The notes beneath the pieces were generated by a model that was given only the letters and a program-made list of their open reading frames with translations, had not been told where the DNA came from and ran no database searches. Positions 20,552 to 46,334 of a stretch of DNA of 64,000 bases are shown here, one piece after another. How positions within the stretch are numbered: the stretch's first letter is position 1; every line of letters starts with the position of its first letter. Both the position numbers and the translations under genes were made by a program. The DNA comes from Leucobacter chromiiresistens (GTDB lineage Bacteria; Actinomycetota; Actinomycetes; Actinomycetales; Microbacteriaceae): assembly GCF_900102345.1 (NCBI RefSeq), contig NZ_FNKB01000001.1:1302001-1366000 (forward strand), read 5' to 3'.

Positions 20552-21401
20552 AGGACCCCTCCATCTTGCGGAAGACGAGCTGACCGATCACGAGGGTGAC
20601 GAGCGAGACCGCGAGCCCGATCAGTACGTACGTGAGGAAGTTGTCGGGGCGGGGCATCGACGGTTCGAGCGGCAGCCAGAACGCGTCGTGGAACAGTTCG
20701 ACGGCCCCGGTGATCGGGTTCGACATGTAGACGTGGTAGAGCCACAGCGGCGCGCGATCGTAGACCAGGTTCCACACGTAGAGCACGGGCGACGCCCAGG
20801 TCGAGAACATGAGGATCAGGTCGACGAAGTTGCGGGCGTCGCGGTAGGCGACGTTGATGGCTCCGAAGAAGAGCCCGAGCCCGAGGGCGAAGAGCACGAT
20901 GATGATGGTGCCCGCGACGAAGGCGACGATCTGCAGCCACCCGATCGTCCAGCCGCAGAGCAGCGCGACGATGAGCAGCAGGGCCGCCTGGGGCAGGAAG
21001 TGGACGAGGGCGACGCCGGTCGCGGCGACCGGGAAGAGCTCGCGGGGCAGATAGATCTTCTTGATGAGCGACGCGTTGTCGACGACGGCGTTCGTGGTGT
21101 TGCGGAGCGTCTCGCTGAAGAGGTTGACCGCGACGATGCCGGCGAAGAGGTACACCGGGAAGAACTGCATGCCGTGGTCGGCCTGCAGGATGACGCCGAT
21201 GACCAGGTAGTACATCAGGAACTGCGCGCCGGGGCGCACGTACGACCACACCCAGCCGAGCACGGAGCCGTGGTACCGGGTGGCGACGCCCTTCTTCAGC
21301 AGCAGCGTGAGCAGGTACCGGTGCCGGAATACGTCGAACAGCCCGCGACTCGCGCCGGGCACGCGGAAGTCGGGGTCGTTCAGCAGGGAAGCATCGCTCA
21401 C
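20535..21401 (-). CDS. wzm: Wzm-type polysaccharide ABC exporter permease
   Basis: The membrane subunit of the ABC-2 glycan exporter formed with the adjacent Wzt. The protein is 288 residues with six predicted helices. After an amphipathic N-terminus (LLTLLLKKGVATRYHGSVLGWVWS) comes the first helix FLMYYLVIGVIL, and the conserved family segment IKKIYLPRELFPVA follows. It lies in the minus-strand operon acyltransferase(LpxA-like)-wzm-wzt-SGNH acyltransferase, with overlapping ends throughout, so it is coupled to glycan modification genes. Confidence 0.92.
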   Translation of the reverse strand: MSDASLLNDPDFRVPGASRGLFDVFRHRYLLTLLLKKGVATRYHGSVLGWVWSYVRPGAQFLMYYLVIGVILQADHGMQFFPVYLFAGIVAVNLFSETLRNTTNAVVDNASLIKKIYLPRELFPVAATGVALVHFLPQAALLLIVALLCGWTIGWLQIVAFVAGTIIIVLFALGLGLFFGAINVAYRDARNFVDLILMFSTWASPVLYVWNLVYDRAPLWLYHVYMSNPITGAVELFHDAFWLPLEPSMPRPDNFLTYVLIGLAVSLVTLVIGQLVFRKMEGSFAQSL

Positions 21402-22144
21402 AACGCGATCCTATCGGCGACGCCTGAGGGTTCGAGCGCGCCGTGCGACCGCCACCAGGCGACCGCGTCGGCGAGCGGCTCGAGCTCGGGCGCCGGGGCT
21501 CCCTCGGTGAGGAGGTCGCCCGTGCGGTAGGAGTGCAGGAGGGCCTCGGCGAGCTCCGCCGAGAAGCCCGCGCGCTGCAGGCCGACGGCGTTGACCCCGG
21601 CGATGCGCGGGGGTGTGCCGTACACCTTGGCGAACGGCGGCACGTCGCGCGCCACCGGCGTGCCCATGCCGACCATCGCGCCGTGCGCGATGACGCGGCG
21701 CTGGTGCACGACCGCGTTCATGCCGATGTTGACGCGGTCGCCGATGACGCAGTGCCCGCCGACGCTCACGCCGGCCGAGACGGTCGAGTCGGCGCCGAGC
21801 AGCACGTCGTGCGCGAGGTAGGCGCGGTTCAGCACCCAGCTGCGGGGGCCGACGGTCGTCTCGCGGTAGCTGCCCTGATGGATGACGGCGCCCTCGCGGA
21901 TCACGGCGCCCGCGCAGATGCGCACGCCGGCATGCAGCAGCTCGCCCGTCCACGCCGTGTTCTGCGGCAGGTTGCTCATCTCGGGGGGAGCGCCGATGAG
22001 CGCCCCGGCCCCGATCCAGACCCCGTCCTCGATCACCGCGGGGCCGAGGATCACGGCGCCCGGGCCGATCGCGACGCCCTCGCCGATCTCGACGCCGTCG
22101 CCGATGAACGCGGTGGCGCTGACCGGCGAATCGGTACGGCTCAC
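21398..22144 (-). CDS. LpxA-like left-handed beta-helix sugar N-acyltransferase
   Basis: A 248-residue hexapeptide-repeat acyltransferase. Residues 10-175 are a left-handed beta-helix (IGDGVEIGEGVAIGPGAVI and so on). The segment NIGMNAVVHQRRVIAHGAMVG contains the His expected as catalytic base. The C-terminal part, PPRIAGVNAVGLQRAGFS, matches the LpxA hallmark rather than a simple WbpD acetyltransferase. LpxA acylates UDP-GlcNAc in lipid A synthesis, which Gram-positives lack. Here the gene is fused by overlap (GTGA) to a GnnA/WbpB-like 3-dehydrogenase, so the likely substrate is a UDP-3-amino sugar (inference). The acyl donor is unknown. It ends 4 nt into wzm. Confidence 0.8.
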   Translation of the reverse strand: MSRTDSPVSATAFIGDGVEIGEGVAIGPGAVILGPAVIEDGVWIGAGALIGAPPEMSNLPQNTAWTGELLHAGVRICAGAVIREGAVIHQGSYRETTVGPRSWVLNRAYLAHDVLLGADSTVSAGVSVGGHCVIGDRVNIGMNAVVHQRRVIAHGAMVGMGTPVARDVPPFAKVYGTPPRIAGVNAVGLQRAGFSAELAEALLHSYRTGDLLTEGAPAPELEPLADAVAWWRSHGALEPSGVADRIAL

Positions 22145-23136
22145 GCGCCCGCCCTCAGGCTCACGACGGCGCCGGTGCGCGCCGACTCGATGGCCGCCTC
22201 GGCCACGCGCAGCGTCTCCGTGCCCTCGCGCAGGGTGACGGCGTCGGCGCGGGTGCCGAGAATGGCGTCGCGGAAGGCCTCGTGCTCGCTGCGCAGGGGT
22301 TCGCGCTTCTCGAGGGAGAACCGGGTGACGGTCCCCTCGCTCACCCCCCGGAACGCCGCCACGGTGTCCCACGACCCCGCGTGCGTGCCGTTCTCGAAGA
22401 ACGTCAGATCGGCCGTGATGGTGTCGGCGACGAACGCCCCGTGCTCGCCGGTGACGACGGTGAGCCGCTCCTTGAACGGCGTGAGCCAGTTCACGAGGTG
22501 ATTGATCATGATGCCGTTCTCGAGCTTGCCCGTGATCGAGACCATGTCCTCGTGCGCGCGGCCCGAGCGGTGCGTGGTCTGCGCGGCCAGCGTCGCGTAG
22601 GGCGACTGCGCGAGCCAGGAGGTGAGGTCGATGTCGTGGCTGCCGAGATCCTTCACGACCCCCACGTCGGCGATGCGCGCGGGGAACGGCCCCTGGCGGC
22701 GCGTCTGGATCTGGTAGACGTCGCCGAGGTCGCCGTTCGCGATGCGCTCGCGCAGGCTGATGAGCGCCGGGTTGAAGCGCTCGACGTGCCCGACGGCCGC
22801 GATCCTGCCGGCGGCCTCGAACGCCTCGACGAGGCGCTCGGCGGCGGGGAGGGCGTGCGCGACGGGCTTCTCGATGAGCGCGTGGATGCCGGCCTCGGCG
22901 AGGGCGAGCCCGACCTCCTCGTGGAACTTCGTCGGCACGGCGACGACGGCCGCCTCGACACCGGCGTCGATGAGCCCCTGCACGGAGTCGTGCATGGGGG
23001 TCTTGCCGGCGACGCCGTGGGGGTCGCCCATCGCGTCCGCGACGGCGATGAGATCGATGCCGTCGACTTCGCGGATCACGCGCGCGTGGTGTCGGCCCAT
23101 CATTCCGAGGCCGATCAGGCCGTACTTGATCGTCAC
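22141..23136 (-). CDS. Gfo/Idh/MocA oxidoreductase (GnnA/WbpB-like UDP-sugar 3-dehydrogenase)
   Basis: A 331-residue NAD-dependent oxidoreductase. The Rossmann motif is YGLIGLGMMGRHHARV, and the catalytic EKP motif is in ALIEKPVAHA. The following AVGHVERFNPALI is typical of enzymes annotated as UDP-N-acetylglucosamine 3-dehydrogenase. With the WbpE-like aminotransferase (30.6 kb) and the overlapping acyltransferase it would introduce a 3-amino group (inference from known GnnA-GnnB-LpxA and WbpB-WbpE-WbpD pathways). The GTG start has AGGAGA 3 nt upstream. Inositol-type dehydrogenase is the main alternative. Confidence 0.8.
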   Translation of the reverse strand: MTIKYGLIGLGMMGRHHARVIREVDGIDLIAVADAMGDPHGVAGKTPMHDSVQGLIDAGVEAAVVAVPTKFHEEVGLALAEAGIHALIEKPVAHALPAAERLVEAFEAAGRIAAVGHVERFNPALISLRERIANGDLGDVYQIQTRRQGPFPARIADVGVVKDLGSHDIDLTSWLAQSPYATLAAQTTHRSGRAHEDMVSITGKLENGIMINHLVNWLTPFKERLTVVTGEHGAFVADTITADLTFFENGTHAGSWDTVAAFRGVSEGTVTRFSLEKREPLRSEHEAFRDAILGTRADAVTLREGTETLRVAEAAIESARTGAVVSLRAGA

Positions 23137-23180
23137 GTTCTCTCCTATCGGTTCGCATGCCGTGTCGGCGGCGAGCATAT

Positions 23181-25187
23181 CTAGTTCAGGTCGCACCCGG
23201 TGATGCGGTAGAGCACCGCTCCGCCCTCGCGATCCACCTCGGTGAGCGTAGCGGATTCCTCGACGCCGGAGATGCCGAGGTACGGGATCGCGCGCGGGGT
23301 GCCGGGGAACACGTACTCGCGCCCGAAGTCGAGCACGAACTCGGCGCCCAGGTCGGCTGCGGCGGCGCAGGCCTCCGGTGTGCCGCGGTCGATGCCGGAG
23401 GTGAGGTCGGCGACGTCGGGGTCGTACGTGCCGCTCGTGTGCGGCACGAGCACTTCGAGCCCGGTCAGGGCGTAGGCGAGCGCGCCGCCGTTCCAGGGGT
23501 TGTCGATGATGACCGCGTCGTCGGGCACGTGCTGGGGGAGGCGCTCGATGATGGCGCGCTCGTCGGGGCTCAGCAGCGGCGACCACCGGTCGAACTCGTA
23601 CTTCGAGCTGACGTAGTTGACGGCGGCGAAGGCGCCCGCACCCTGCGTCGCGGCGAGCAGGAAGAGCGTGGCGAACGCCACCCAGAACGCGTGGCGCGAC
23701 CGCTCGCCGCCCGCGGGGAACATGCGGGCCGTGCGCCGCATCGCCGTGCTGGCCACCGCCGCGGCGGCGGAGGCGCCGTGCACGGCGAGCGGCAGTGCGC
23801 CCAGCGGCACCAGCGCGGCGAGCCGCCACGGGTCGTTGTACCAGGGGGAGAGGAAGAACGTGCGCCAGTCGGAGGTGGGGAAGCCGTCGGCGATCACGTA
23901 GAACGCGATCAGCACGAGCGAGAGGCCGAGCACCCACCGCAGGCGGCGGCGCCGGAGGAGCAGTGCGGCGCCGAGCAGCACCAGCAGCGTGACCGGCCAG
24001 TTGTGGCCCTCCATCTTCGGCGTCGCGCCGACGGCGTCGAGGATCGCGCCGAACGGCGAGGGGTGGCCGCCCTCCCACGGGTTGGTGGTGGTGCGGCCGA
24101 AGTACCAGGCCAGCACGGTGAGGGCGGCGAAGGCGGCCAGCCCGACCGCGGCGAGCGAGGCGCGCAGCGCCCGGCTCCGCGAGGGCTGCACCAGCGAGCC
24201 GTCGGCGGCGGCGATCCGGCCGCCCCGGAACGCCCGCACGGCCGCGGCGATGATGGGCACGGCGAGCCACAGGATGAGCACGTGGACGGCGTTGGGGTGC
24301 GCGAGCACCGCCGCGCCGAGCGAGCCGATGAACAGGGTCCAGCTCGTGCCGATCGGCAGCGGCAGCGATCGGCGCGCCCAGCCGAGGCCGAGCAGCTGGA
24401 GGGCGGCCACGAGCACGTAGGGCAGCAGCGCCAGGGAGAGGAGGTTCGGGTACAGTACGCCGAACCCGGCGAGCGACAGCGGGAAGTTGGGGAACGCGGC
24501 GGCGACGACGCCCGAGACGACCGTGACGCGCGTCGACGGGCCGGCGAGGGCGCGCCCCAGCGCGACGGCGCCGATCGGCCAGACCACGCAGCAGACGACG
24601 AAGAGCACGGCGTTGGTGGCGAGCGGGATCGAGGCGCCGCTCAGCTGGGCGACGAGCGCGACGAACCCGTGCCACAGGGTCGGGTAGAACGCCGGGTCGC
24701 CGGGGGAGGCGAGATCCATCGCGAACGGCGAGGCGTTGCCGCTGTCGAGGATCAGGCGGGTGGCGTTGAGGTGGAAGATCGCGTCGTAGGTCTGCGAGAT
24801 CGCATCGGCCGACTTCATGCTGAGCATGAGGATCGTCGCGGTCGCGACCCCGCCGATCGCGGCCGCGCCGACGAGCACCCAGAACCGCTGCGACGGTGCG
24901 ATCCGGCGGGCGGCGGCCTCGCGGGGGGCGCCGAGCCACCTGCGGAGCACGAGCAGCACGAGGGCGAGCAGGATCGCGACGACGAACGGCGAGAGGAGCG
25001 TCCAGCGGATGCCGAGCGCGCCCGAGAAGATCGGCGCGAGCGCCAGCACGGCGAAGGCGGCGGGCACGGCGACGACGGCCGCCGCCGCGCCGCGCAGGCG
25101 CAGCGCGTAGGCGCTCGGCAGCCCGAGGAGGGCGACGACCCCGAGGGCGATCAGCGCCGGGAGGGCGAGCGGCAGCCAGGCCGTCAT
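23181..25187 (-). CDS. DUF6541-type multi-pass membrane protein
   Basis: A 668-residue integral membrane protein with about 12-14 predicted helices and a C-terminal soluble tail (residues about 560-668: DERAIIERLPQHVPDDAVIIDNP and similar). It matches the DUF6541 family, found in actinobacterial glycan loci. The overall build resembles GT-C membrane transferases that use polyprenyl-phosphate sugars: the first large loop carries SQTYDAIFHLNATR with the Asp. A glycosyltransferase role is therefore plausible but unproven. The ATG overlaps the stop of the DUF2304 gene, and with the GT2 gene upstream it forms a recurrent three-gene cassette. Confidence 0.8.
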   Translation of the reverse strand: MTAWLPLALPALIALGVVALLGLPSAYALRLRGAAAAVVAVPAAFAVLALAPIFSGALGIRWTLLSPFVVAILLALVLLVLRRWLGAPREAAARRIAPSQRFWVLVGAAAIGGVATATILMLSMKSADAISQTYDAIFHLNATRLILDSGNASPFAMDLASPGDPAFYPTLWHGFVALVAQLSGASIPLATNAVLFVVCCVVWPIGAVALGRALAGPSTRVTVVSGVVAAAFPNFPLSLAGFGVLYPNLLSLALLPYVLVAALQLLGLGWARRSLPLPIGTSWTLFIGSLGAAVLAHPNAVHVLILWLAVPIIAAAVRAFRGGRIAAADGSLVQPSRSRALRASLAAVGLAAFAALTVLAWYFGRTTTNPWEGGHPSPFGAILDAVGATPKMEGHNWPVTLLVLLGAALLLRRRRLRWVLGLSLVLIAFYVIADGFPTSDWRTFFLSPWYNDPWRLAALVPLGALPLAVHGASAAAAVASTAMRRTARMFPAGGERSRHAFWVAFATLFLLAATQGAGAFAAVNYVSSKYEFDRWSPLLSPDERAIIERLPQHVPDDAVIIDNPWNGGALAYALTGLEVLVPHTSGTYDPDVADLTSGIDRGTPEACAAAADLGAEFVLDFGREYVFPGTPRAIPYLGISGVEESATLTEVDREGGAVLYRITGCDLN

Positions 25188-25558
25188 GAGGCGGTGCCTT
25201 CGCCCGGGCCCGAGTCGTCCAGCCGCTCGGAGATGCGCGCCTCCATCAGCGCGACGGCCCGCGCGAGCTGCGTCACCCGCGCATCGCTGCGGGCCTTGGC
25301 GCGGATTACGGCCACGGCGAACGCGAGCACGGCGACGATGAAGACGTAGAGCAGCAGGTCGGTGCCGCGCCCGATGCCGAGCAGGTTCGCGACGGCGGTG
25401 AGGGCGTTCGGGAACAGGATCGCGAGCGCGGCGGCGATGACGAAGAGGATGGCGAAGATGCGCTTCAGCGCCAGCGAGCGCTCGCCGGGCAGGAAGCGCA
25501 CGGCGAGCGCGGCGAGCGCGACCATCCCGAGGATGAGCAGGAGCTGGAAGATCGACAT
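25184..25558 (-). CDS. DUF2304 small membrane protein
   Basis: A 124-residue protein with three hydrophobic helices (residues about 2-20, 33-50 and 65-85), then a cytoplasmic tail with heptad-like character (ARVTQLARAVALMEARISERL). DUF2304 proteins are encoded beside polyprenyl-phosphate glycosyltransferases and are thought to assist them, but no activity is known. It lies 6 nt after the GT2 gene and overlaps the DUF6541 gene, so the three are one unit. Confidence 0.85.
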   Translation of the reverse strand: MSIFQLLLILGMVALAALAVRFLPGERSLALKRIFAILFVIAAALAILFPNALTAVANLLGIGRGTDLLLYVFIVAVLAFAVAVIRAKARSDARVTQLARAVALMEARISERLDDSGPGEGTAS

Positions 25559-25564
25559 GGTGGC

Positions 25565-26260
25565 CTACCTGATGATGAGGTCGATGAGGATGTTGACCGA
25601 GTTGAGCAGCGACTGGCCCTTCGCCTTCGAGTACTCGCTGTAGATCACCTCGACGGGCTCTTCGGCGTACGGGAGGCCCGTGCGGCCGAGCTGCACGACG
25701 ATCTCGGTGCCGTGCGCCATGCGATCCTGCCGCAGGTGGATGCCCCGCACCGCGTCTGCGCGAATGACCCGGAGGCCGTTGTGGGCGTCGGTGAGTCGCG
25801 TGCGCGTCGTCCAGTTCGTCACGAGGACGGCGGTCTTCAGCACGACCTTCTTCATGAAGCCGGCCTGCGTGCGGTCGTCGAGGAAGCGGGATCCGAACAC
25901 GATCGCGAGGTTCTCGTCGCGTGCGCGCTGCAGCATCGCCTGCGCATCGACGACGCGGTGCTGGCCGTCGGCGTCGAACGTGACGACGTACTTCGCCCCC
26001 CGCTCGAGCGCGTACGCGAAGCCGGTCTGCAGCGCGGCGCCCTGCCCGAGGTTGATGGGGTGGTTGACCACGCGCGCGCCCGCGGCGCGGGCGATCGCCC
26101 CCGAGCCGTCTCGCGATCCGTCGTCGATGCACACGACCTGGGGGAACACGCGCAGCAGGTCCGCGAGTACGCCGCCGATCACCGATGCCTCGTTGTAGAG
26201 GGGGATCACCACCCATACGTCGAGATCGTGACGCTTCGAGGCGACGGGGGCAGAGTCCAT
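25565..26260 (-). CDS. Polyprenyl-phosphate sugar synthase-like GT2
   Basis: A 231-residue GT2 enzyme of the dolichyl-phosphate-mannose-synthase type, expected to load a sugar from a nucleotide donor onto polyprenyl phosphate at the inner membrane face. Motifs are VWVVIPLYNEASVIGGVL, CIDDGSRDGS, the DAD metal site in VTFDADGQH and GSRFLD. It has no C-terminal membrane helices; the DUF2304 partner may supply them. Its ATG faces the cell-wall protein gene 92 bp away. Sugar specificity cannot be assigned. Confidence 0.87.
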   Translation of the reverse strand: MDSAPVASKRHDLDVWVVIPLYNEASVIGGVLADLLRVFPQVVCIDDGSRDGSGAIARAAGARVVNHPINLGQGAALQTGFAYALERGAKYVVTFDADGQHRVVDAQAMLQRARDENLAIVFGSRFLDDRTQAGFMKKVVLKTAVLVTNWTTRTRLTDAHNGLRVIRADAVRGIHLRQDRMAHGTEIVVQLGRTGLPYAEEPVEVIYSEYSKAKGQSLLNSVNILIDLIIR

Positions 26261-26351
26261 GACCTCTATTCTGGCAGACGAGCGCAGATGCGCTTATTCT
26301 TTACCATCAAGAGATACGTCGAAGCTCAGGCTTCACAACGGGGGAGTCTGA
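26261..26351. promoter_or_regulatory. Divergent promoter region, GT2 cassette / wall protein
   Basis: A 91-bp AT-richer gap. On the plus strand TATTCT is a possible -10 about 55 nt before the GTG, and GGGGGAG is the ribosome site. No clear minus-strand promoter can be picked. Confidence 0.35.
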
Positions 26352-29297: not shown

Positions 29298-30640
29298 GAT
29301 GCGAATGTGTACTGATGCAGCGTAGAACTCGGCCATTCCGATGGGTTAACTCGATTCGAGCCCAAATTTGGGGAATACTAGCGCTCCGCCGCCTCAGAAG
29401 GGACGGTGTGCCATTCCCTGATTCCTGTCCGGCGGATCATGCCGCTGAACGTGTGCTTATCGGACCAGTGAATAGCGCAGGACAAGGCTATCTCTGGGCG
29501 CGAGCTTTAGAACGAGCGAGACCAGATCTTCTGCCGATCAATCTCAAGGTGTCTTCCGGGTCAGACAAGTTCAATTATCCCGCTGACTTAACTGTGAACA
29601 GCGGATACTCCGCCTACTCGCGTAAGTGGCAGAGGAATCAGACATCCGCGCTCGAAGGTTATCGAGCGGTGCTCATCGAGTCCGCTTCCCCTGTCCTGGG
29701 AGGCGCTTATCGTGGGGATGTCCTTGCCCAGATAGATGCACTGCAACGCCGGAACGTTCAACTCGGACTCTTGTTCCACGGGAGCGATCTGAGAGATCCC
29801 GATATGCACTTGGCAACCGAACCGGACTCATATTTCTCTGTCGATTCAAACTTCACAGAATCGATGCGGCAGAAGACTCGTCGCAGCAGGGCGCTGATCG
29901 AGGAATCAGGGCTGCCAGTTCTTGTATCGACTCCGGATCTTCTGCGTGAGGTTGAGGGGGCTAAGCTGCTGCCGATTGTTGTCGATCCAAAAGTTTGGGC
30001 GACAACGGACCTTCCCTTCCAGACGAGCCGACGTCCTTGTGTGGTGCATGCGCCATCGAGTTCCCACATCAAGGGGACGGACCTCATTGATAAGACCATG
30101 CACCGCCTGCACAGACTGGGTCTCATTGAGTACCGCAGACTAGCCGGAATGCGCCATCGTGAAATGCTTGACGTCTATCGCAGTGCGGACATCGTCCTCG
30201 ATCAGTTCCGTGGGGGACCCTATGGCGTTGCGGCTTGTGAGGCGCTTGCTGCCGGTCGAATCGTCGTGTCCCATGTTCCAGTTCATGTTCGAAAACTCAC
30301 CCATGAACTTTCCGGTCTAGAGCTCCCCATCGTCCAGTCGACAGCTGCGGAGCTTGAGGACGTGGTCGCCTCCATTGTCGCCGATCCGGGCGATGCATTG
30401 AAGAGGGCAAACCAAGGGCCAGGTTTTATTTCGCACTGGCACGATGGGCGAGAGAGCGGCCACGTGCTTTCGCAGTGGCTTGATTCCCGTCTACCCTCTT
30501 AAGGCTTCTGCCGTAACATTCTCGGTCGAACCAGGACCTCGATCGCGCGGGCGCATGAGCGCTTCGGCTAACCTTGGACCATACTCGCTCCGGCAACAGG
30601 GCGAATTTAAATTGAGAGGCCGAGATCATATGGCAATCGA
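27225..30640. other. Low-GC block 1
   Basis: From about 27225 the DNA is clearly AT-richer and GC3 falls, covering the LGFP/CWB2 part of the wall protein and the following glycosyltransferase. GC-rich codon use returns within about 30 nt of the aminotransferase start at 30630. A small AT-richer patch also occurs at about 26530-26720. No transposase or tRNA flanks it, so homologous exchange is likelier than an element insertion. Confidence 0.7.
29315..30502 (+). CDS. Glycosyltransferase, family 4-like
   Basis: About 395 residues with a GT-B fold. The C-terminal half has a typical GT4 pattern: VVHAPSSSHIKGTDLI (donor-domain start), a helix-rich middle, ADIVLDQFRGGPYGVAACEALAAG with the E-x7-E region, and VVSHVP. 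The N-terminal half has LIGPVNSAGQGYLWARALE, a glycine-loop-like start. The ATG at 29315 is preferred; a TTG at 29285 would overlap the previous gene by 13 nt. No good ribosome site is seen for either. The gene lies in the low-GC block with rare codons for this genome. Donor and acceptor are unknown. Confidence 0.75.
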   Translation: MQRRTRPFRWVNSIRAQIWGILALRRLRRDGVPFPDSCPADHAAERVLIGPVNSAGQGYLWARALERARPDLLPINLKVSSGSDKFNYPADLTVNSGYSAYSRKWQRNQTSALEGYRAVLIESASPVLGGAYRGDVLAQIDALQRRNVQLGLLFHGSDLRDPDMHLATEPDSYFSVDSNFTESMRQKTRRSRALIEESGLPVLVSTPDLLREVEGAKLLPIVVDPKVWATTDLPFQTSRRPCVVHAPSSSHIKGTDLIDKTMHRLHRLGLIEYRRLAGMRHREMLDVYRSADIVLDQFRGGPYGVAACEALAAGRIVVSHVPVHVRKLTHELSGLELPIVQSTAAELEDVVASIVADPGDALKRANQGPGFISHWHDGRESGHVLSQWLDSRLPS

Positions 30641-31742
30641 ATTTATTCCTCCGGCCAAGCCGATCATCGGCCAGGAGGAGCGGGAGGCCGTCGACCGGGT
30701 GCTCCGCTCCGGCATGATCGCCCAGGGGCCCGAGGTGGCCGCCTTCGAGCAGGAGTTCGGCGCGCACTTCGCCGATGGCCGCGAGACCGTCGCCGTCAAC
30801 TCGGGAACGAGCGGGCAGCATCTCGGCCTGCTCGCCGCCGGCGTCGGCCCCGGCGACGAGGTCATCGTGCCCTCCTTCACCTTCGCCGCGACCGGCAACT
30901 CCGTCGCGCTGACCGGTGCGACCCCCGTCTTCGTCGACATCGAGCCCGAGTACTTCACGCTCGATCCCGAGGCCGTGCGCGCGGCGATCACGCCCCGCAC
31001 CAAGGGCATCATGCCGGTGCACCTGTACGGCCACCCGTTCCTCGTCGACCAGATCGAGGCGATCGCGCGCGAGCACGGCGTCGCCATCTACGAGGACGCC
31101 GCTCAGGCGCACGGCGCGAGCTGGAACGGCCGGCAGGTCGGCACCATCGGCGACTTCGCCATGTTCAGCCTCTACCCGACGAAGAACATGACGTCGGGCG
31201 AGGGCGGCATGGTCACCTGCGCCTCCGAGACGATCGCCCGCAACGTGCGACTGCTCCGCAACCAGGGCATGGAGACGCAGTACGCCAACGAGGTCATCGG
31301 GTTCAACGCCCGCATGACCGACGTGCACGCGGCGATCGGCCGCGTGCAGCTCACGAAGGTGGACGCGTGGACGGCGCAGCGCCAGCGCAACGCCGCGGCG
31401 CTCGACGCCGGGCTCGCGGGAGTCGCGGGCGTGCAGACCCCGAAGGTGCACGACAGCGCGGTGCACGTCTACCACCAGTACACGGTGCGCCTCGATGCGG
31501 GCGAGCGCGACCGCATCCGCGAAGCGCTGAAGCAGGAGCACAACGTCGGATCGGGCGTCTACTACCCGATCCCGAACCATCGCCTGCCGTCGCTCGAGAA
31601 GTACGCGCCGGGGCTCGACCTGCCCGAGACAGAGCGCGCCGCCGCCGAGGTGCTGTCGCTGCCGGTGCACCCGTCGCTGAGCGAGGCCGATCTCGACCGC
31701 ATCATCGCCGCGGTGACCGCCGTCGCCGGGGCGGGCGCGTGA
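30630..31742 (+). CDS. DegT/DnrJ/EryC1 aminotransferase (WbpE/GnnB-like)
   Basis: A PLP-dependent sugar aminotransferase, 370 residues. The start is MAIEFIPPAKP; SGTSGQHLGL binds the cofactor phosphate, the Asp is in YEDAAQAHGA, and the Schiff-base Lys is in LYPTKNMTSGEGG. The segments HVYHQYTVRLD and VYYPIPNHRLPS are close to WbpE, which aminates C3 of UDP-3-keto-GlcNAcA. With the GnnA/WbpB-like dehydrogenase and LpxA-like acyltransferase at 21.4-23.1 kb it completes a 3-amino-sugar branch (inference). The ATG is preceded by GAGAGG. C4-specific aminotransfer is the alternative. Confidence 0.85.
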   Translation: MAIEFIPPAKPIIGQEEREAVDRVLRSGMIAQGPEVAAFEQEFGAHFADGRETVAVNSGTSGQHLGLLAAGVGPGDEVIVPSFTFAATGNSVALTGATPVFVDIEPEYFTLDPEAVRAAITPRTKGIMPVHLYGHPFLVDQIEAIAREHGVAIYEDAAQAHGASWNGRQVGTIGDFAMFSLYPTKNMTSGEGGMVTCASETIARNVRLLRNQGMETQYANEVIGFNARMTDVHAAIGRVQLTKVDAWTAQRQRNAAALDAGLAGVAGVQTPKVHDSAVHVYHQYTVRLDAGERDRIREALKQEHNVGSGVYYPIPNHRLPSLEKYAPGLDLPETERAAAEVLSLPVHPSLSEADLDRIIAAVTAVAGAGA

Positions 31743-31761
31743 TCGCGGAGGCCGCGTCAGC

Positions 31762-32967
31762 TTGAGGATCGCAATCGCAAGCCGCATCTTCGAGCCCGAG
31801 CCGAGTGCGGCGTCGTTCCGGCTGGCCGCGCTCGCCCGCGCCCTCGTCGAGGCCGGGCACGAGGTCGAGGTGCTGACGGTGCGGGCTCCGTCGCGGTTGC
31901 GCGGCACGGGCGAGATGATCCGCGGCTGCCGCGTCAAGCGGTTCCCCGTGCTCCGCGATGCGACGGGGTACGTGCGCGGGTACCTGCCGTACCTGAGCTT
32001 CGACGTGCCGCTGTTCTTCAGGCTGCTGCTCGGGCGCAAGCGCGACCTCGTCGTCTCCGAACCGCCGCCGACGACGGGGTTCTTCGTGCGCCTCGCGACC
32101 CGGCTGCGGCGCACGCCGTACGCGTACTACGCCGCAGACATCTGGTCCGACGCGGCCTCGCAGACCGGCGCGCCCGCATGGATGCTGCGCGTCGTGCGCG
32201 CGCTCGAGGCGTTCTCGCTCCGCGGCGCTCGCAGCGTGCTCTCCGTCTCCTCCGGCGTCACGAGTCGGTTGTCGGAGTTCGCGATCGACACCGTGGCGAC
32301 CGTCGGCAACGGCGTCGACGCCTCGCGCTTCTCGGGGGCGCTAGCCGCCGCGCGGAGGGGCGCGGAGGATCTGCGCGGCCGCGACGCCGAGTACGTCTAC
32401 GCGGGCACCGCCTCCGAATGGCACGGCGCCGACGTCTTCGTGGACGCCCTGCCCGCGGTGCTGCGCGACGTGCCGCGAGCGCGCCTCCGATTCATCGGCG
32501 GCGGCGCGGAGCTGGAGCACCTGCAGCGCCGCGCGGAGGAGCTCGGCGTGGCGGGCGCGGTCTCGTTCGAGCCCGTGATGAACGCGGAGCGCATCGCTCC
32601 CGTGCTGGCCTCGGCGACCGCGGCGATCGCGAGCGTGCGCCCGGGAGCGGGATACGATTTCGCGTTCCCCACCAAGCTCTACAGCGCGGCCGTGTGCGGC
32701 GCGCCCCTGATCTACGCCGGAGCCGGACCCGCGGAGGAGTTCGTGCGCACCCGCGTCGACGGCGCGCCGCTGGGAGCATCGGTGACGCACGACGCGACGG
32801 AGGTGGCGGCGGCGATGGTGTCGGCCGCCCGCGCCCTCGAGGCCGACGAGCCCCAGGCGAATTGGGAGCGGCGCGGCGCGGTATCGCGTTGGGCGACGCA
32901 GCACGTCGGCCTGGAGGCGGTCGCCGGCCGCGCGGTCGGCGTGCTCACCGAAGCGGTCCGCCGGTGA
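31762..32967 (+). CDS. Family 4 glycosyltransferase (WbuB-like)
   Basis: A 401-residue GT-B transferase starting at a TTG (MRIAIASRIFEPEPSAASFR), 19 nt after the aminotransferase and probably co-transcribed. It resembles fucosyl/amino-sugar transferases of the WbuB group: SEPPPTTGFFVRLATRL, YYAADIWSDAA, VVGNGVD-type hinge (VGNGVDASRF), VYAGTASEWHGADVFVDAL and FPTKLYSAAVCGAPLIYAG. It is GC-rich like the core genome, between the two low-GC blocks. A TTG start is required because upstream in-frame codons give no better choice. The linkage is not predictable. Confidence 0.85.
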   Translation: MRIAIASRIFEPEPSAASFRLAALARALVEAGHEVEVLTVRAPSRLRGTGEMIRGCRVKRFPVLRDATGYVRGYLPYLSFDVPLFFRLLLGRKRDLVVSEPPPTTGFFVRLATRLRRTPYAYYAADIWSDAASQTGAPAWMLRVVRALEAFSLRGARSVLSVSSGVTSRLSEFAIDTVATVGNGVDASRFSGALAAARRGAEDLRGRDAEYVYAGTASEWHGADVFVDALPAVLRDVPRARLRFIGGGAELEHLQRRAEELGVAGAVSFEPVMNAERIAPVLASATAAIASVRPGAGYDFAFPTKLYSAAVCGAPLIYAGAGPAEEFVRTRVDGAPLGASVTHDATEVAAAMVSAARALEADEPQANWERRGAVSRWATQHVGLEAVAGRAVGVLTEAVRR

Positions 32968-33049
32968 CCCGCCGGTACTCGACGCAGACGGGCGGGGGCG
33001 ACGCCGCGGACGGCTCGCGGAGCAGCTCGACGATGAAGGAGACGGAACG

Positions 33050-37091: not shown

Positions 37092-37120
37092 CCCAGCTCT
37101 CACGCCGGATGCGCTTGTTC

Positions 37121-38194
37121 CTATCGCTTTGCGTAGAGTGCCTCGATTGCGGCGATCGCTCGTTGAGCGGCATGTCCATCGCCGTACGGAGTGGCATCGG
37201 TCGCGGGAGGTGCTGTGCGCGTCAGAGCCTTTGTGATCTCCGCAGAGGTATTCGCGAGAACGTTCCAGCCAAGTTCGATGGTCTCCACCCATTCTGTTTC
37301 TCGCCGAACAGTCGTGCACGGCACTCGGAGCAAGAATGCTTCCTTCTGCAATCCGCCGGAATCAGTGACCACTCCCGCGCTATTGACTACGGCCGCGATG
37401 AGTTCAGGGTAAGCAAGTGGATCATGAACAGCCAGCGCTCCCTTCTCAAGCACTATGCCGTGATCAGCTGCCTTCGCTCGCACTCGCGGATGAGCAAGCA
37501 GAACGACAGGTCGGTCTGCAGCGGCGAGGGCATCCACTATTTCGCGCAGTCGCTCCGGGTCGTCCGTATTCTCAGCTCGGTGAATCGTCGCCACATAGTA
37601 CCCGAGAGGGGCGTCGATGTCTGCGAGTGGGTTTTCTGCCTTCGTTGAAAGGACTGAGTCTCGTACCTGCAAGAGGACATCCGTCATGACGTCTCCGACG
37701 AGCTCGGACCGCGCCGCAAGACCTTCACTTTCGAGATGATGCATCGCAACTTTGGTCGGAGCAAGACATAGATCCGCAGCATGATCGGTCAATACTCTGT
37801 TGTGCTCTTCGGGCATTGACCGGTTGAAGGAACGAAGGCCAGCTTCCAAATGAGCGACCGGATAATGAAGCTTAACGGCGCTGACCGCAGCAGCTAGTGT
37901 CGAGTTCGTGTCACCGTAAACGAGTACGCAATCTGGCTCGTGCTGCTGTAGAACTTGATCCATCTGGGCGAGCATCGCCCCCGTCTGCGCACCGTGGGAG
38001 CCGGACCCGACACCAAGATGAGCATCGGGCTCCGGAATCCCGAGATCCCGGAAGAACACATCAGAGAGCATAGGGTCATAGTGCTGGCCCGTGTGCACGA
38101 TGATGTGCTCGTGACCAACCTCGCGCAGGACATTCGCGATGGGCGCAAGCTTGACGAACTGGGGTCGGGCTCCGACAACACTCATGATCTTCAC
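37121..38194 (-). CDS. wecB: UDP-N-acetylglucosamine 2-epimerase (WecB/WbpI family)
   Basis: A 357-residue non-hydrolysing 2-epimerase. The start VKIMSVVGARPQFVKLAPI is followed by VHTGQHYDPMLSDVFF, VYGDTNSTLA, HLEAGLRSFNRSMPEEHNR with catalytic acidic residues, and TDSGGLQKEA near the C-terminus. It makes UDP-ManNAc from UDP-GlcNAc, or the 3-N-acylated uronic acid counterpart if it is WbpI-like; sequence alone does not separate these. It is the only minus-strand gene in the 26-42 kb stretch. TACAAT lies about 8 nt before the GTG; an ATG nine nt inside the gene is an alternative start. Confidence 0.9.
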   Translation of the reverse strand: MKIMSVVGARPQFVKLAPIANVLREVGHEHIIVHTGQHYDPMLSDVFFRDLGIPEPDAHLGVGSGSHGAQTGAMLAQMDQVLQQHEPDCVLVYGDTNSTLAAAVSAVKLHYPVAHLEAGLRSFNRSMPEEHNRVLTDHAADLCLAPTKVAMHHLESEGLAARSELVGDVMTDVLLQVRDSVLSTKAENPLADIDAPLGYYVATIHRAENTDDPERLREIVDALAAADRPVVLLAHPRVRAKAADHGIVLEKGALAVHDPLAYPELIAAVVNSAGVVTDSGGLQKEAFLLRVPCTTVRRETEWVETIELGWNVLANTSAEITKALTRTAPPATDATPYGDGHAAQRAIAAIEALYAKR

Positions 38195-38452
38195 CCAACC
38201 ATTGTATGGTTTGAGCACCGGCGGCCCCCGGTACGAGTGGCGCGCCGCAGCAGTCGGGGATGACGTCAGCCGCGTTGAGCATTGGACTGCCAATGCACTC
38301 GAGTTCGGCGTCGCGACGAACACAGTGCGATACTCTTGCGATCGGGCTATCGGACTCGCCTCGGGGTTGCTCGATCAGCAGTGACTAAGTGGCTCAGCGT
38401 TCTATCGGTGCGGCCGGTACTGACACGTCATGAGCAGAACGAAGGGACCGTA
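38195..38452. other. Divergent spacer, epimerase / glycosyltransferase
   Basis: A 258-bp gap without a convincing gene. The minus-strand TACAAT for the epimerase sits at its left end, and GAAGGGA at its right end is the ribosome site for the TTG at 38453. An in-frame extension of the glycosyltransferase runs through part of it but has no family similarity. Confidence 0.5.
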
Positions 38453-39556
38453 TTGTCTGAACAGCCGGTGATGATCTTCCACGTCGCGTACCGGCTCGAT
38501 CCGGAGGCGACCAGCGCCAGCGGCATTCGGCCTTTGAAGATGCGCCGCGCTTTCGAGGACCTCGGGTATCGGGTTATCGAGATTTCTGGTCGTCACTCTG
38601 AAAGGCGAGGTCGTCTGAAGAGAGTTCGCAAGGAGATCCGCAGCGGGCTCCGTGTTGATTTCGTGTATTCGGAGTCGGCAACGGCTCCAACAGGTCTCGG
38701 CGAACCGCTCACGCTCCACACGAGTTTCAGTCGGGACGTCCGCTTCCTGCATTTCTGCAAACGGTTCGGCATTCCGGTCGGGCTCTTTTATCGCGACATC
38801 TACTGGAATTTTCCGATCTATCGCAAGATAGTGAAGTGGCCGTTTTCGATGGTTCTGCGCGCGCTGCACCGGCGCGACCTGCGGGGCTACCGCCGGGCGG
38901 GGATCGACATCTACCTCCCGTCGATGGAGATGAGCCAGTGGGTGCCCACCATCGACCGCGCCCGGTTCCGGGAGCTGCCGCCTGGGTGCGAGATCCGCGA
39001 CGGCGCCCCCGCACCGGAGGGCGAGCGCGCGCCGCTGCGCCTGCTCTACGTGGGCGGGCTGAGCGACAACTACCGCATGCACGAGAGCGTGCGCGCCATC
39101 GCCGGGCGGCCGGGCGTCACGCTCACCATCTGCACGCGCGAGGCGGAGTGGAAGCTCCGCGAACCCGAGTACCGGGAGATGATGGCCCCGAACATCCGCG
39201 TCGTGCACCGCAGCGGCGATGAGCTGCGCGAGCTCTACGACGAGGCGAACGCGTGCCTGCTCGCGGTCGAGCCGATCGTCTACTGGACGTTCGCCGTTCC
39301 GGTGAAGCTCTTCGAATACCTCGGCAACGGCAAGCCGGTGCTCGCCTCGTCGGGCAGCTACTCGGGGCGCTTCGTGCGCGACCAGAGCGTCGGATGGACG
39401 GTCGACTACGGGAGCGCAGAGTTCGCGGAGACGCTCGACCGCTTGGTCGAACGGCCGGAGGAGCTGGAGGCGGTGACGGAGTGGGTGCGCAAGGTGCGGC
39501 ACGATCACACGTGGCAGTCCCGGGCCCGGCAGGTGGTCGCCGACCTCGCGGGGTGA
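38453..39556 (+). CDS. Glycosyltransferase, paralogue B (compositional chimera)
   Basis: A 367-residue GT-B enzyme starting at TTG (MSEQPVMIFHVAYRLDPEA), with GAAGGGA upstream; the start aligns with paralogue A. Shared motifs are FVYSESATAPTG, IPVGLFYRDIYWNFP, LYVGGLSDNYRMHE and KLFEYLGNGKPVLAS. Codons 1 to about 131 are AT-richer like low-GC block 2. From about 38845 to the end third positions are almost entirely G/C, so the gene looks spliced from two sources in a conserved region. It stays open, so the product is probably functional. Confidence 0.82.
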   Translation: MSEQPVMIFHVAYRLDPEATSASGIRPLKMRRAFEDLGYRVIEISGRHSERRGRLKRVRKEIRSGLRVDFVYSESATAPTGLGEPLTLHTSFSRDVRFLHFCKRFGIPVGLFYRDIYWNFPIYRKIVKWPFSMVLRALHRRDLRGYRRAGIDIYLPSMEMSQWVPTIDRARFRELPPGCEIRDGAPAPEGERAPLRLLYVGGLSDNYRMHESVRAIAGRPGVTLTICTREAEWKLREPEYREMMAPNIRVVHRSGDELRELYDEANACLLAVEPIVYWTFAVPVKLFEYLGNGKPVLASSGSYSGRFVRDQSVGWTVDYGSAEFAETLDRLVERPEELEAVTEWVRKVRHDHTWQSRARQVVADLAG

Positions 39557-39559
39557 GTG

Positions 39560-39620
39560 CGGCGAGCCCCGTGCGCTCGCTGAGCCCCGCGGGCCCCGTG
39601 GGCTCGGCGAGCCTCGTGCG
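39560..39620. repeat. Short imperfect direct repeat in intergenic GC-rich tract
   Basis: CGGCGAGCCCCGTGCG (39560-39575) and CGGCGAGCCTCGTGCG (39605-39620) differ by one base. Between them GAGCCC and GGGCTC could pair. The tract separates two glycosyltransferase genes and may act as a weak terminator. Confidence 0.5.
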
Positions 39621-39645
39621 TCGGTTTCGGCCGGGCGGCAGGTCG

Positions 39646-39651
39646 TAGTGT
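39646..39651 (+). promoter_or_regulatory. -10-like TAGTGT, leaderless promoter
   Basis: TAGTGT ends 6 nt before the ATG of the glycosyltransferase at 39658, with no ribosome site between. Confidence 0.4.
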
Positions 39652-39657
39652 AGGCGT

Positions 39658-40776
39658 ATGCGCGTTCTGGTCGTCACCCCCTGGTTCCCCTCCCGCATGC
39701 ACACGGGATCGGGCGTGTTCAACCTCAGGGACGCCGAGATGATCGCAGCCGGGCGCGACGTGCGCGTGCTGCACCTCATCCGCCCCGACTGGTATCTCGA
39801 GGCGGAGGAGGCGGGCACCGACCTGAGCGTGCGCCGAGTGCCCTTCTCGGCGACGCGCCCGCGCACCTGGCGAGGGGCGCGGTCTGCGATTCGCGGCGAG
39901 CTCGCGCGAGCCGACGTGCTGCACACGATGGCGTTCCCCGCACTGCTCCCGTTCTGGGGCCTGCGCGTGCGTCTGCCGTGGGTGCACAGCGAGCACTGGT
40001 CGGGGCTCGCGAAGCCCGTCACCGGCGTCAAGGGTGGGATCAAGCGCCTCGTGTTCCGCCGGCTGCGCCGCCCCGACCGGGTGGTGGCGGTGAGCGCGTC
40101 GCTCGCGCGATCGATCCGCCGGTGGTGCCGGGCCGAGCCGCGGGTGATCGAGAACGCTGTGCCGATGCCGCCGCTCGGCCGCCACTCCACGCCCGCCGCG
40201 GTGGGCGCAGCGGTGCGATTGATCGCGGTCGGCGGCCTGACCCCGCACAAGGGGCCCGGGATCGCCGTCGACACCCTCGCGGAGCTGGTGCGGCGCGGAG
40301 TCGACGCGGAGCTGCGCTGGGTGGGCCAGGGGCCGGAGCGCGGCGCCGTGGACGCCGCCGTCGCCGAGGCGGGGCTCCAGTCGCGGGTGCACCTGCTCGG
40401 CCAGCTGGAGCGCGCGGATCTGGAGGCGGAGCTGCTCGCAGCGCACGTCTTCGTGCTGCCGACGGCGGGGGAGACGTTCGGGATCGCGCTCGCGGAGGCG
40501 CTCGCGTGCGGCCTCCCCGTCGTGGCCTCGGGCACCGGCGGGCACACGGGGCTGCTCGAGGAGTTCGCCGCCGCGCGGCTCGCGAAGCGCGCGGCTCCGG
40601 ATCTCGCGGACGCGGTTCAGGAGCTGCTCCGCGCCGACAGCGTCGAGCAGCGCGCGGCGACGGCCGCGCAGGCCCGTGAGCGCTTCTCCCCGGAGCGGCG
40701 ATCCGAGGCGTACGCGGCGGTGTATGCGGAGGCCCGCGAGCAGGCGGGCGCCGCCGCGGATTCGGGTGTTCGCTGA
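39658..40776 (+). CDS. Family 4 glycosyltransferase
   Basis: A 372-residue GT-B enzyme of the PimB/GPGTF group. Motifs are MRVLVVTPWFPSRMHTGSGVF, HSEHWSGLAKP, VIENAVPMPP, the donor domain's LIAVGGLTPHKGPGIAVD and the E-x7-E acid pair in GETFGIALAEALACGLPVVAS. It is GC-rich like core genes. It has its own leaderless-type promoter and precedes the UDP-sugar dehydrogenase by 41 bp. The sugar is not predictable. Confidence 0.87.
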   Translation: MRVLVVTPWFPSRMHTGSGVFNLRDAEMIAAGRDVRVLHLIRPDWYLEAEEAGTDLSVRRVPFSATRPRTWRGARSAIRGELARADVLHTMAFPALLPFWGLRVRLPWVHSEHWSGLAKPVTGVKGGIKRLVFRRLRRPDRVVAVSASLARSIRRWCRAEPRVIENAVPMPPLGRHSTPAAVGAAVRLIAVGGLTPHKGPGIAVDTLAELVRRGVDAELRWVGQGPERGAVDAAVAEAGLQSRVHLLGQLERADLEAELLAAHVFVLPTAGETFGIALAEALACGLPVVASGTGGHTGLLEEFAAARLAKRAAPDLADAVQELLRADSVEQRAATAAQARERFSPERRSEAYAAVYAEAREQAGAAADSGVR

Positions 40777-40805
40777 GGGATCAGCCGGGCGGCGCGCCGT
40801 GGCGC

Positions 40806-40811
40806 TAGACT
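40806..40811 (+). promoter_or_regulatory. -10-like TAGACT, leaderless promoter of the UDP-sugar dehydrogenase
   Basis: TAGACT ends 6 nt before the GTG at 40818. No Shine-Dalgarno is present. Confidence 0.45.
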
Positions 40812-40817
40812 GATCCC

Positions 40818-42107
40818 GTGAAAATTGCAGTCGTCGCCACCGGAAAGATCGGGCTCCCGCTCGCCACGCAGTACGCCTCGATGGGGCACGAAGTCGTGGG
40901 GGTCGACGTCAACCAGGCTCTGGTCGACTGCATCAACCGCGGCGAAGAGCCCTTCCCGGGCGAGGCGGGTCTCGCCGAGAAGCTCGCCGAGCAGGTGCCC
41001 GCGGGCAGGCTGCGCGCGACGAGCGATTACGCCGACGCCATTCCCGGGGCCGACGCGGTCGTGCTCGTCGTGCCGCTCCTCGTCGACGAGGAGACCTGGG
41101 AGCCCGACTTCAAGTGGATGGATGCGGCGACGCGCTCGCTCGCCGAGCACCTGACCCCCGGCACCCTCGTCTCCTACGAGACCACCCTGCCGGTCGGCAC
41201 GACGCGCGGCCGCTGGAAGCCGCTCATCGAGGAGGTCTCCGGGCTCGCCGAGGGCACCGACTTCCACCTCGTGTTCTCGCCCGAGCGCGTGCTCACCGGC
41301 CGTGTGTACGCCGACCTGAAGAAGTACCCGAAGCTCGTGGGCGGTCTGAACGAGGCCGGCACCCGCAAGGCGATCGACTTCTACGAGTCGGTGCTCACCT
41401 TCGACGAGCGCACCGATCTGCCCCGGCCCAACGGCGTCTGGGACATGGGCACCGCCGAAGCGGCCGAGATGGCGAAGCTGGCCGAGACGACGTACCGCGA
41501 CGTGAACATCGGCCTCGCGAACCAGTTCGCGCGCTTCGCCGACACCGCGGGCATCGACGTGTACAAGGTGATCGAGGCCTGCAACTCGCAGCCGTTCAGC
41601 CACATCCACCGCCCCGGCATCGCCGTCGGCGGCCACTGCATCCCGGTCTACCCGCGTCTCTACCTGTCGACCGACCCCGACGCCGACATCGTGCGCACCG
41701 CCCGCAACTACAACGCGACGATGCCCGAGTACGTGGTGGATCGCGTGCAGCAGACCATCGGCGACCTTTCGGGCCAGCGCGTCGTCGTGCTCGGCGCGGC
41801 CTACCGCGGCGGCGTCAAGGAGACCGCGGTCTCCGGTGTGTTCCCGACGGTCGAGGCGCTCGTCGAGCGGGGCGCCGCGGTCACCGTGCACGACCCGCTG
41901 TTCTCCGACGAGGAGCTGGCGGGGTACGGATTCACGGCCCACACGATCGGCGACCCGGTGGACGTCGCGATCCTGCAGGCCGACCACGCCGACTACCTGG
42001 CGCTCGGGCCCGCCGACTTCCCCGAGATCAAGCTGTTCGCCGATGGGCGCAACGCCACCGATCCGGCGAAGTGGACCGGGGTGCCGCGCATCGTCATCGG
42101 CGCCTGA
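40818..42107 (+). CDS. wecC: UDP-HexNAc 6-dehydrogenase (WecC/WbpA family)
   Basis: A 429-residue NAD-dependent nucleotide-sugar dehydrogenase that oxidises C6 of UDP-GlcNAc (WbpA) or UDP-ManNAc (WecC) to the uronic acid. The N-terminal Rossmann motif is degenerate (VVATGKIGLPLATQYASMGHEVVGVD). The catalytic Cys is in AVGGHCIPVYP near residue 273, with the Lys/Asn of AEMAKLAETTYRDVN, and the C-terminal UDP-binding domain has LGAAYRGGVKETAVS. With the epimerase at 37.1 kb it gives a HexNAc uronic acid. WecC and WbpA activity cannot be separated by eye, so the symbol is provisional. Confidence 0.9.
   Translation: MKIAVVATGKIGLPLATQYASMGHEVVGVDVNQALVDCINRGEEPFPGEAGLAEKLAEQVPAGRLRATSDYADAIPGADAVVLVVPLLVDEETWEPDFKWMDAATRSLAEHLTPGTLVSYETTLPVGTTRGRWKPLIEEVSGLAEGTDFHLVFSPERVLTGRVYADLKKYPKLVGGLNEAGTRKAIDFYESVLTFDERTDLPRPNGVWDMGTAEAAEMAKLAETTYRDVNIGLANQFARFADTAGIDVYKVIEACNSQPFSHIHRPGIAVGGHCIPVYPRLYLSTDPDADIVRTARNYNATMPEYVVDRVQQTIGDLSGQRVVVLGAAYRGGVKETAVSGVFPTVEALVERGAAVTVHDPLFSDEELAGYGFTAHTIGDPVDVAILQADHADYLALGPADFPEIKLFADGRNATDPAKWTGVPRIVIGA

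Positions 42108-45110: not shown

Positions 45111-46334
<1,224 letters not shown>

What the first reader, a model, noticed from the sequence alone, without database searches (positions are those of the whole stretch)
21398..42107. Complete enzyme set for a 3-N-acylated diamino-uronic acid, using an LpxA-like acyltransferase in a Gram-positive
Scattered through the locus are a GnnA/WbpB-like 3-dehydrogenase (22141-23136), a WbpE-like aminotransferase (30630-31742), a beta-helix acyltransferase (21398-22144), a WecB/WbpI-type 2-epimerase (37121-38194) and a WecC/WbpA-type 6-dehydrogenase (40818-42107). Known precedents are WbpA-B-E-D-I (UDP-ManNAc3NAcA) and GnnA-GnnB-LpxA. The acyltransferase has the LpxA C-terminal motif GVNAVGLQRAGFS, not a simple WbpD pattern, and overlaps the dehydrogenase gene. 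This predicts a wall sugar N-acylated at C3, possibly with an acyl group other than acetyl.
Basis: partly seen in the sequence, partly recalled or inferred. Interest (0 to 1): 0.72.

Follow-up and report, generated by a model that had tools for sequence, protein, structure and literature searches.

The report
Diamino-uronic wall sugar pathway, Leucobacter
A Gram-positive bacterium, Leucobacter, carries the five enzymes expected to make an unusual acidic amino sugar for its cell surface; its LpxA-like enzyme most likely adds an ordinary acetyl group, not a fatty acid, so this looks like a variant of a known pathway.

Summary
The reading 'complete set for a 3-N-acylated diamino-uronic acid' is well supported: in 54 genomes of the genus the acyltransferase and the aminotransferase occur in the same 43, and each of the 43 has exactly one of two kinds of 3-dehydrogenase. 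The 2-epimerase is nearest to a characterised UDP-2,3-diacetamido-glucuronic acid 2-epimerase and carries its Trp in place of the Arg of UDP-GlcNAc enzymes. The 'LpxA motif' does not point to a fatty acyl group: the best solved sequence match is Pcryo_0615, an N-acetyltransferase of a diacetamido sugar pathway with a similar motif. Best reading: UDP-ManNAc3NAcA for an ABC-exported surface glycan. That sugar is already known in actinobacteria (PMC6598116, PMC13274773; passages read). What looks new: the 3-dehydrogenase is GnnA-like and replaces another kind used by relatives, and 7 of the 43 genomes show no NDP-sugar 6-dehydrogenase over the family cut-off, so the 3-amino group is probably made first. 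No enzyme was assayed, and gene content alone gives the order.

The parts
21398..22144 (-). AcT: LpxA-like left-handed beta-helix acyltransferase, most likely a 3-N-acetyltransferase acting on UDP-GlcNAc3N or its uronic acid
   Evidence: Pfam Acetyltransf_11; best PDB sequence hit 8e62, titled Pcryo_0615, N-acetyltransferase for a diacetamido sugar; model pLDDT 95
22141..23136 (-). DH3: GnnA-like NAD-dependent UDP-GlcNAc 3-dehydrogenase (Gfo/Idh/MocA)
   Evidence: NCBIfam UDP-GlcNAc 3-dehydrogenase 220 bits (cut-off 450) against IolG 105; best PDB sequence hit 7bvj, titled GnnA; tree
30630..31742 (+). AT: PLP sugar aminotransferase (DegT/DnrJ/EryC1), inferred to aminate the 3-keto sugar
   Evidence: Pfam; WbpE among PDB hits, 234 bits, not the best; present in the same 43 of 54 genomes as AcT
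37121..38194 (-). EPI: non-hydrolysing 2-epimerase of the UDP-GlcNAc3NAcA type
   Evidence: best PDB 8sxv, 347 bits, against 1f6d UDP-GlcNAc 2-epimerase 121; Trp and Tyr diagnostic residues met, Ala not
40818..42107 (+). DH6: NDP-sugar 6-dehydrogenase, the only match over the TIGR03026 cut-off in this genome
20535..21401 (-). Wzm: ABC-2 type membrane subunit of a glycan exporter, presumably same operon
   Evidence: Pfam ABC2_membrane; 4-base overlap with AcT
19421..20551 (-). Wzt/TagH-like ATPase of the glycan exporter, with a C-terminal LGFP repeat
   Evidence: Pfam ABC_tran and LGFP; NCBIfam teichoic acid export ATPase 184 bits, cut-off 538
23181..25565 (-). DUF6541 protein, presumably same operon
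   Evidence: Pfam DUF6541 503 bits
25565..26260 (-). GT2, like polyprenyl-phospho-N-acetylgalactosaminyl synthase PpgS, presumably same operon
   Evidence: 262 bits, cut-off 370
17229..19349 (-). Acyl_transf_3-SGNH protein, possible O-acyltransferase for the glycan; start codon not settled
31762..32967 (+). GT4 glycosyltransferase
39658..40776 (+). GT4 glycosyltransferase upstream of DH6

Best explanation
The five enzymes make UDP-2,3-diacetamido-2,3-dideoxy-D-mannuronic acid (UDP-ManNAc3NAcA) from UDP-GlcNAc for a wall or capsule-like glycan exported by the Wzm/Wzt transporter of the same gene run. DH3 oxidises C3, AT aminates it, AcT acetylates the new amine from acetyl-CoA, DH6 oxidises C6 to the carboxylate, and EPI inverts C2. 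Shown here: family membership, co-distribution, gene overlaps, and two of three epimerase residues for the 3-acetamido-uronate substrate. Inferred: the order (C3 first, then C6, C2 last), the use of acetyl-CoA, the position of amination, the exported polymer, and that all five work on one sugar.
For: AcT and AT are found in the same 43 of 54 genomes of the genus; 43 of 43 have exactly one of two 3-dehydrogenase kinds, and only 1 of the 11 others has either. DH6 orthologs are in 29 of the 43 and 1 of the 11; EPI orthologs in 18, each of them with DH6. In 3 of the 4 genomes with the second dehydrogenase kind and a DH6 ortholog (G021, G042, G069; not G038), the matched DH6 stretch ends 26 to 165 bases upstream of that dehydrogenase (positions). 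EPI: best match a UDP-GlcNAc3NAcA 2-epimerase; Trp at its 307 position and Tyr at 96. AcT: best sequence match Pcryo_0615, 104 bits, 33% identity by structure alignment. 13 of 17 actinobacterial loci outside Leucobacter and Canibacter carry a DH3 homologue and 12 of 17 an AT homologue (E up to 1e-8) within the stretch held around AcT.
Against: The third epimerase residue, Ala18, is Leu in the window. DH6 resembles UDP-ManNAc dehydrogenases (archaeal model 244 bits, WecC 201) more than the UDP-GlcNAc 6-dehydrogenase TviB (92), which would also fit a separate ManNAcA route. All NCBIfam equivalog scores for AcT, DH3 and AT are below their cut-offs. Pcryo_0615 groups with the window's family at 98/94, but an AU test does not reject placing it with lipid A LpxA (p 0.204). 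4 of 17 actinobacterial loci show neither DH3 nor AT near AcT. The 11 genomes without AcT are a weak negative set: only G030, G037, G043 and G067 are 98% complete or more, and G050 has DH3 and DH6 but neither AcT nor AT. Genomes are not independent samples.
Confidence: 0.72

Rival explanations
1. The core trio makes only a neutral 3-acetamido sugar (UDP-GlcNAc3NAc), while DH6 and EPI separately make UDP-ManNAcA from UDP-GlcNAc. Two sugars, not one diamino-uronic acid.
For: 7 of 43 core genomes have no NDP-sugar 6-dehydrogenase over the TIGR03026 cut-off; DH6 scores best, among the equivalog models, against UDP-ManNAc dehydrogenase.
Against: EPI has the Trp that marks the 3-acetamido-uronate substrate. 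10 core genomes have a DH6 ortholog but no EPI homologue at E 1e-30, so DH6 there does not depend on this kind of epimerase. DH6 orthologs are in 29 of 43 genomes with the core, against 1 of 11 without.
Confidence: 0.14
2. AcT works like lipid A LpxA and puts a longer acyl chain (for example 3-hydroxyacyl from acyl-ACP) on the 3-amino group, giving a lipid-modified sugar.
Against: Best sequence hit is an acetyltransferase of a diacetamido sugar pathway. The residue after HQ is Arg in 43 of 47 rows of the window's family (Phe in 3, Gly in 1), Phe in the 6 rows from lipid A loci and in E. coli LpxA; the 25 residues after the motif carry a mean charge of -3.6 (n 47, range -6 to +2), against 0 to +4 in the 6 lipid A rows (one of them truncated) and +2 in E. 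coli LpxA. No FabZ, LpxB, LpxC or LpxD homologue in the window at E 1e-5; the rest of the genome was not tested for these.
Confidence: 0.06
3. AT aminates C4 of a 4-keto-6-deoxy sugar and AcT is a PglD/VioB-like 4-N-acetyltransferase.
For: AT matches C4 enzymes (perosamine synthetase 259 bits, ArnB 223) about as well as C3 enzymes (WbpE 234, QdtB 216; positions of action recalled); a PF02719 match (family of UDP-GlcNAc dehydratases) is in 54 of 54 genomes.
Against: PF02719 presence does not follow AT; a 3-dehydrogenase does, in 43 of 43. AcT is nearer to 8e62 (104 bits) than to VioB (44 bits).
Confidence: 0.04

Closest known systems
WbpA-B-E-D-I pathway to UDP-ManNAc3NAcA (Pseudomonas aeruginosa; order as told in PMC10622841)
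   Same: Same five reaction types; the 2-epimerase is of the UDP-GlcNAc3NAcA kind.
   Different: DH3 is nearer to GnnA (69.7 bits) than to the WbpB-like WlbA (49.7 bits); DH6 resembles WecC; C3 chemistry probably precedes C6 oxidation.
Pcryo_0615 (8e62), N-acetyltransferase of a diacetamido-2,3-dideoxy sugar pathway of Psychrobacter cryohalolentis
   Same: Best sequence match of AcT; shared HQR, Met at the E. coli LpxA Gly173 position, similar C-terminal motif.
   Different: 189-residue chain against 248; the structure alignment covers 181 residues, so most of the window's C-terminal tail has no counterpart; a Gram-negative.
GnnA-GnnB-LpxA (lipid A with GlcN3N; GnnA solved as 7bvj from Acidithiobacillus ferrooxidans)
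   Same: DH3 lies on the same side of a 100/99 branch as GnnA and as dehydrogenases found behind lpxA in Acidobacteriota and a myxococcal MAG.
   Different: No lipid A genes in the window; AcT is not in the LpxA group of the tree; linked to glycan export.
Utr locus of Streptomyces griseus (teichuronic-acid-like polymer with ManNAc3NAcA; PMC13274773, passages)
   Same: Same proposed five steps in an actinobacterial wall polymer.
   Different: There the polymer is carried on wall teichoic acid; here the genes lie with an ABC exporter. UtrB and UtrJ sequences were not compared.

Membership tests
UDP-ManNAc3NAcA pathway | 3-dehydrogenase, aminotransferase, N-acetyltransferase, 6-dehydrogenase and 2-epimerase families in one genome | tested here: met
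   co-distribution
UDP-ManNAc3NAcA pathway | 2-epimerase nearest to the characterised UDP-GlcNAc3NAcA enzyme, with its Trp for Arg | tested here: met
   best match 8sxv; Trp and Tyr met, Ala18 is Leu (2 of 3). Substrate specificity itself needs an assay
UDP-ManNAc3NAcA pathway | the sugar is present in the polymer | not testable with these tools
   needs wall chemistry
Lipid A LpxA | score over the curated LpxA cut-offs | tested here: not met
   143.5 of 226 and 135.8 of 231.05 bits
Lipid A LpxA | HQF motif and full C-terminal domain | tested here: not met
   HQR; PF13720 matched over 42 of 82 positions
Lipid A LpxA | catalytic His (His125 of E. coli, number recalled) | tested here: met
   His112 aligned
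Pcryo_0615-type N-acetyltransferase | sequence grouping with Pcryo_0615 apart from LpxA | tested here: inconclusive
   98/94 support, but long branch, and the AU test does not reject the alternative, p 0.204
UDP-GlcNAc 3-dehydrogenase (GnnA) | groups with GnnA rather than with inositol dehydrogenases | tested here: inconclusive
   profile scores and best PDB sequence hit favour GnnA; the tree holds no inositol dehydrogenase; fold scores tie
C3-specific sugar aminotransferase (WbpE) | nearest to C3 enzymes | tested here: inconclusive
   mixed hits

The most novel reading that the evidence does not exclude
Leucobacter builds the sugar in modules and in a different order from Pseudomonas: a core of 3-dehydrogenase, aminotransferase and acetyltransferase makes UDP-GlcNAc3NAc straight from UDP-GlcNAc; C6 oxidation and then C2 inversion are optional later modules gained or lost between species, which switches the charge of the surface glycan; and the 3-dehydrogenase slot is filled by one of two distantly related enzymes that never occur together in the 54 genomes, one of them GnnA-like as in lipid A biosynthesis.
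Probability: 0.5. Interest if true: 0.5.

Novelty: new variant of a known kind. Interest (0 to 1): 0.38.

Why it matters
It removes a tempting wrong inference (an LpxA motif in a Gram-positive means a fatty-acylated sugar) and gives a genus-wide natural experiment: two exchangeable 3-dehydrogenases and two optional modules on one core. That makes the order of steps testable in vitro and predicts which species have a neutral, a glucuronic or a mannuronic diamino sugar on the surface, which bears on lectins that read such glycans (as the umbrella toxin lectins of PMC13274773 do).

Tried and rejected

Identity limits for 'ortholog' (DH6 at least 78%, EPI at least 73%) were set after seeing the gaps in the lists (next best 40% and 47%). 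In one search at most 26 candidates per genome were scored; for the seven genomes without a 6-dehydrogenase, (where each listed candidate was scored) also found none at 1e-25. The Fisher and partition figures ignore kinship and are not used as evidence. In one search one row (L078) was read in a wrong frame; the tree was rebuilt. Rows dropped from the DH3 tree: L001 (the window's own), L037 and L043 (truncated). L001 was dropped from the AcT tree, where L002, 96% identical, stands for the window. The 47 rows are the window, 36 of the 46 actinobacterial loci held (L002-L047) and 10 of the 120 listed database proteins. Entry codes 8E62 and 7BVJ: no paper held. For the absence of a Leucobacter report of this sugar the searches were made; one search listed 15 of 33 hits and 12 of 1,993.
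Full report
What is there. The window lies in a 3.21-Mb genome in two contigs. The nearest named relative found is Leucobacter chromiiresistens, 96% identical over the acyltransferase. On the minus strand a run of close-set or overlapping genes reads GT2 (PpgS-like), DUF6541, DH3, AcT, Wzm, Wzt and then an acyltransferase-SGNH protein, so DH3 and AcT probably belong to a glycan-export operon. AT, EPI and DH6 lie among glycosyltransferases; the five genes span 21 kb.

The dehydrogenases. The window's DH3 scores 220 bits against the archaeal UDP-GlcNAc 3-dehydrogenase model (cut-off 450) and 105 against inositol 2-dehydrogenase (cut-off 355). The best solved sequence match is 7bvj (69.7 bits), titled GnnA of Acidithiobacillus ferrooxidans; WlbA (3q2k) scores 49.7. 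Relatives in other actinobacterial genera use a second kind, 24-31% identical to the window's over 12 alignment rows, and so do some Leucobacter, 58-63% identical to the Cellulosimicrobium protein. The second kind too has 7bvj as its best solved match. In the tree the second kind (21 rows) is one side of a branch with support 100/99; on the other side stand the window's kind (19 rows, itself one group at 97/94), GnnA, an Eremiobacterota protein and dehydrogenases from loci with lpxA. Holding the two actinobacterial kinds together is not rejected at 0.05 (p 0.059). On the AcT tree the kind changes at least twice.

Co-distribution. Over 54 genomes of the genus: AcT in 43, AT in the same 43, the window's kind of DH3 in 29, the second kind in 15, never both; each of the 43 has exactly one. 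Of the 11 without AcT only G050, a fragmented assembly, has one; but only 4 of these 11 are 98% complete or more, so the negative set is weak. DH6 orthologs are in 30 (29 of the 43, and G050), EPI orthologs in 18, each with DH6. Seven of the 43 (G017, G022, G036, G040, G044, G045, G056; 99-100% complete), two of them with the window's kind of DH3, have no 6-dehydrogenase over the TIGR03026 cut-off. Ten have DH6 and no EPI homologue at 1e-30 (completeness 84-100%). This nested pattern (core, then DH6, then EPI) fits a pathway in which C3 amination comes first, C6 oxidation second and C2 inversion last. It is an inference from gene content; some absences could be assembly gaps or non-homologous replacements. 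In seven further core genomes (G018, G035, G039, G041, G049, G060, G065) a different 6-dehydrogenase is over the cut-off and no DH6 ortholog.

Epimerase and 6-dehydrogenase. EPI matches the T. thermophilus UDP-GlcNAc3NAcA 2-epimerase at 347 bits, the UDP-GlcNAc 2-epimerases 4neq at 259 and 1f6d (E. coli, recalled) at 121. The structure paper (PMC10622841; outline, part 1 of 3 of the Results, Discussion and passages seen) names Trp307 in place of an Arg that binds the 3-hydroxyl, Tyr96 and Ala18 as marks of this substrate. By the alignment the window has Trp, Tyr and Leu: two of three. DH6 is the only NDP-sugar 6-dehydrogenase over the cut-off in this genome.

What is known. ManNAc3NAcA occurs in the matrix and wall polysaccharide of Cutibacterium acnes (PMC6598116, passages) and in the teichuronic-acid-like polymer of Streptomyces griseus, for which a Wbp-like route UtrD, UtrA/B, UtrJ, UtrH was proposed (PMC13274773, passages). 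So neither the sugar nor a Gram-positive pathway is new, and an LpxA-like N-acetyltransferase of this kind is already solved. No report on this sugar in Leucobacter was seen in the listings, two of which were capped. New as far as seen here: the GnnA-like dehydrogenase in this setting, its exclusive exchange with another kind, and cores without a 6-dehydrogenase.

Verdict. Interest is moderate.

Noticed in passing
L077:2579-3481(+), L071:489-1391(-), L075:500-1390(-): Beside the second kind of 3-dehydrogenase, 3 of the 10 Leucobacter loci looked at (L071-L080, about 1.5 kb of flank each) show an LpxD-like protein of about 300 aa (LpxD model 165 bits, cut-off 242.5, for L077; PF04613 below its cut-off in all three). 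An LpxD-like acyltransferase in a Gram-positive is unexpected and may be a second N-acyltransferase of the glycan.
   Followed up: partly
window 19421-20551(-): The ABC exporter ATPase ends in an LGFP repeat (23.8 bits, cut-off 22), a cell-wall-associated repeat, at the place where Wzt proteins carry a glycan-binding domain (roles recalled).
   Followed up: no
window 26352-29297(+): A 981-aa protein with LGFP repeats and three cell wall binding 2 stretches lies between the export genes and AT; matches to it recur in 20 of the 61 loci scanned.
   Followed up: no
window 35925-37091(+) and 38282-39556(+): Two GT4-like glycosyltransferases flank EPI and share the stretches MIFHAAYRLNPNAKSASGIRP and MIFHVAYRLDPEATSASGIRP near their starts, apparently a duplicated pair.
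   Followed up: no
window 45183-46334(+) and 47950-49854(-): UDP-galactopyranose mutase (over its curated cut-off) and a GlfT2-like galactofuranosyltransferase suggest a second, galactofuranose-containing polymer next door.
   Followed up: no
window 43161-45062(-): A 633-aa protein with a LicD match just over its cut-off, weak methyltransferase matches and DUF6752.
   Followed up: no
   Followed up: no
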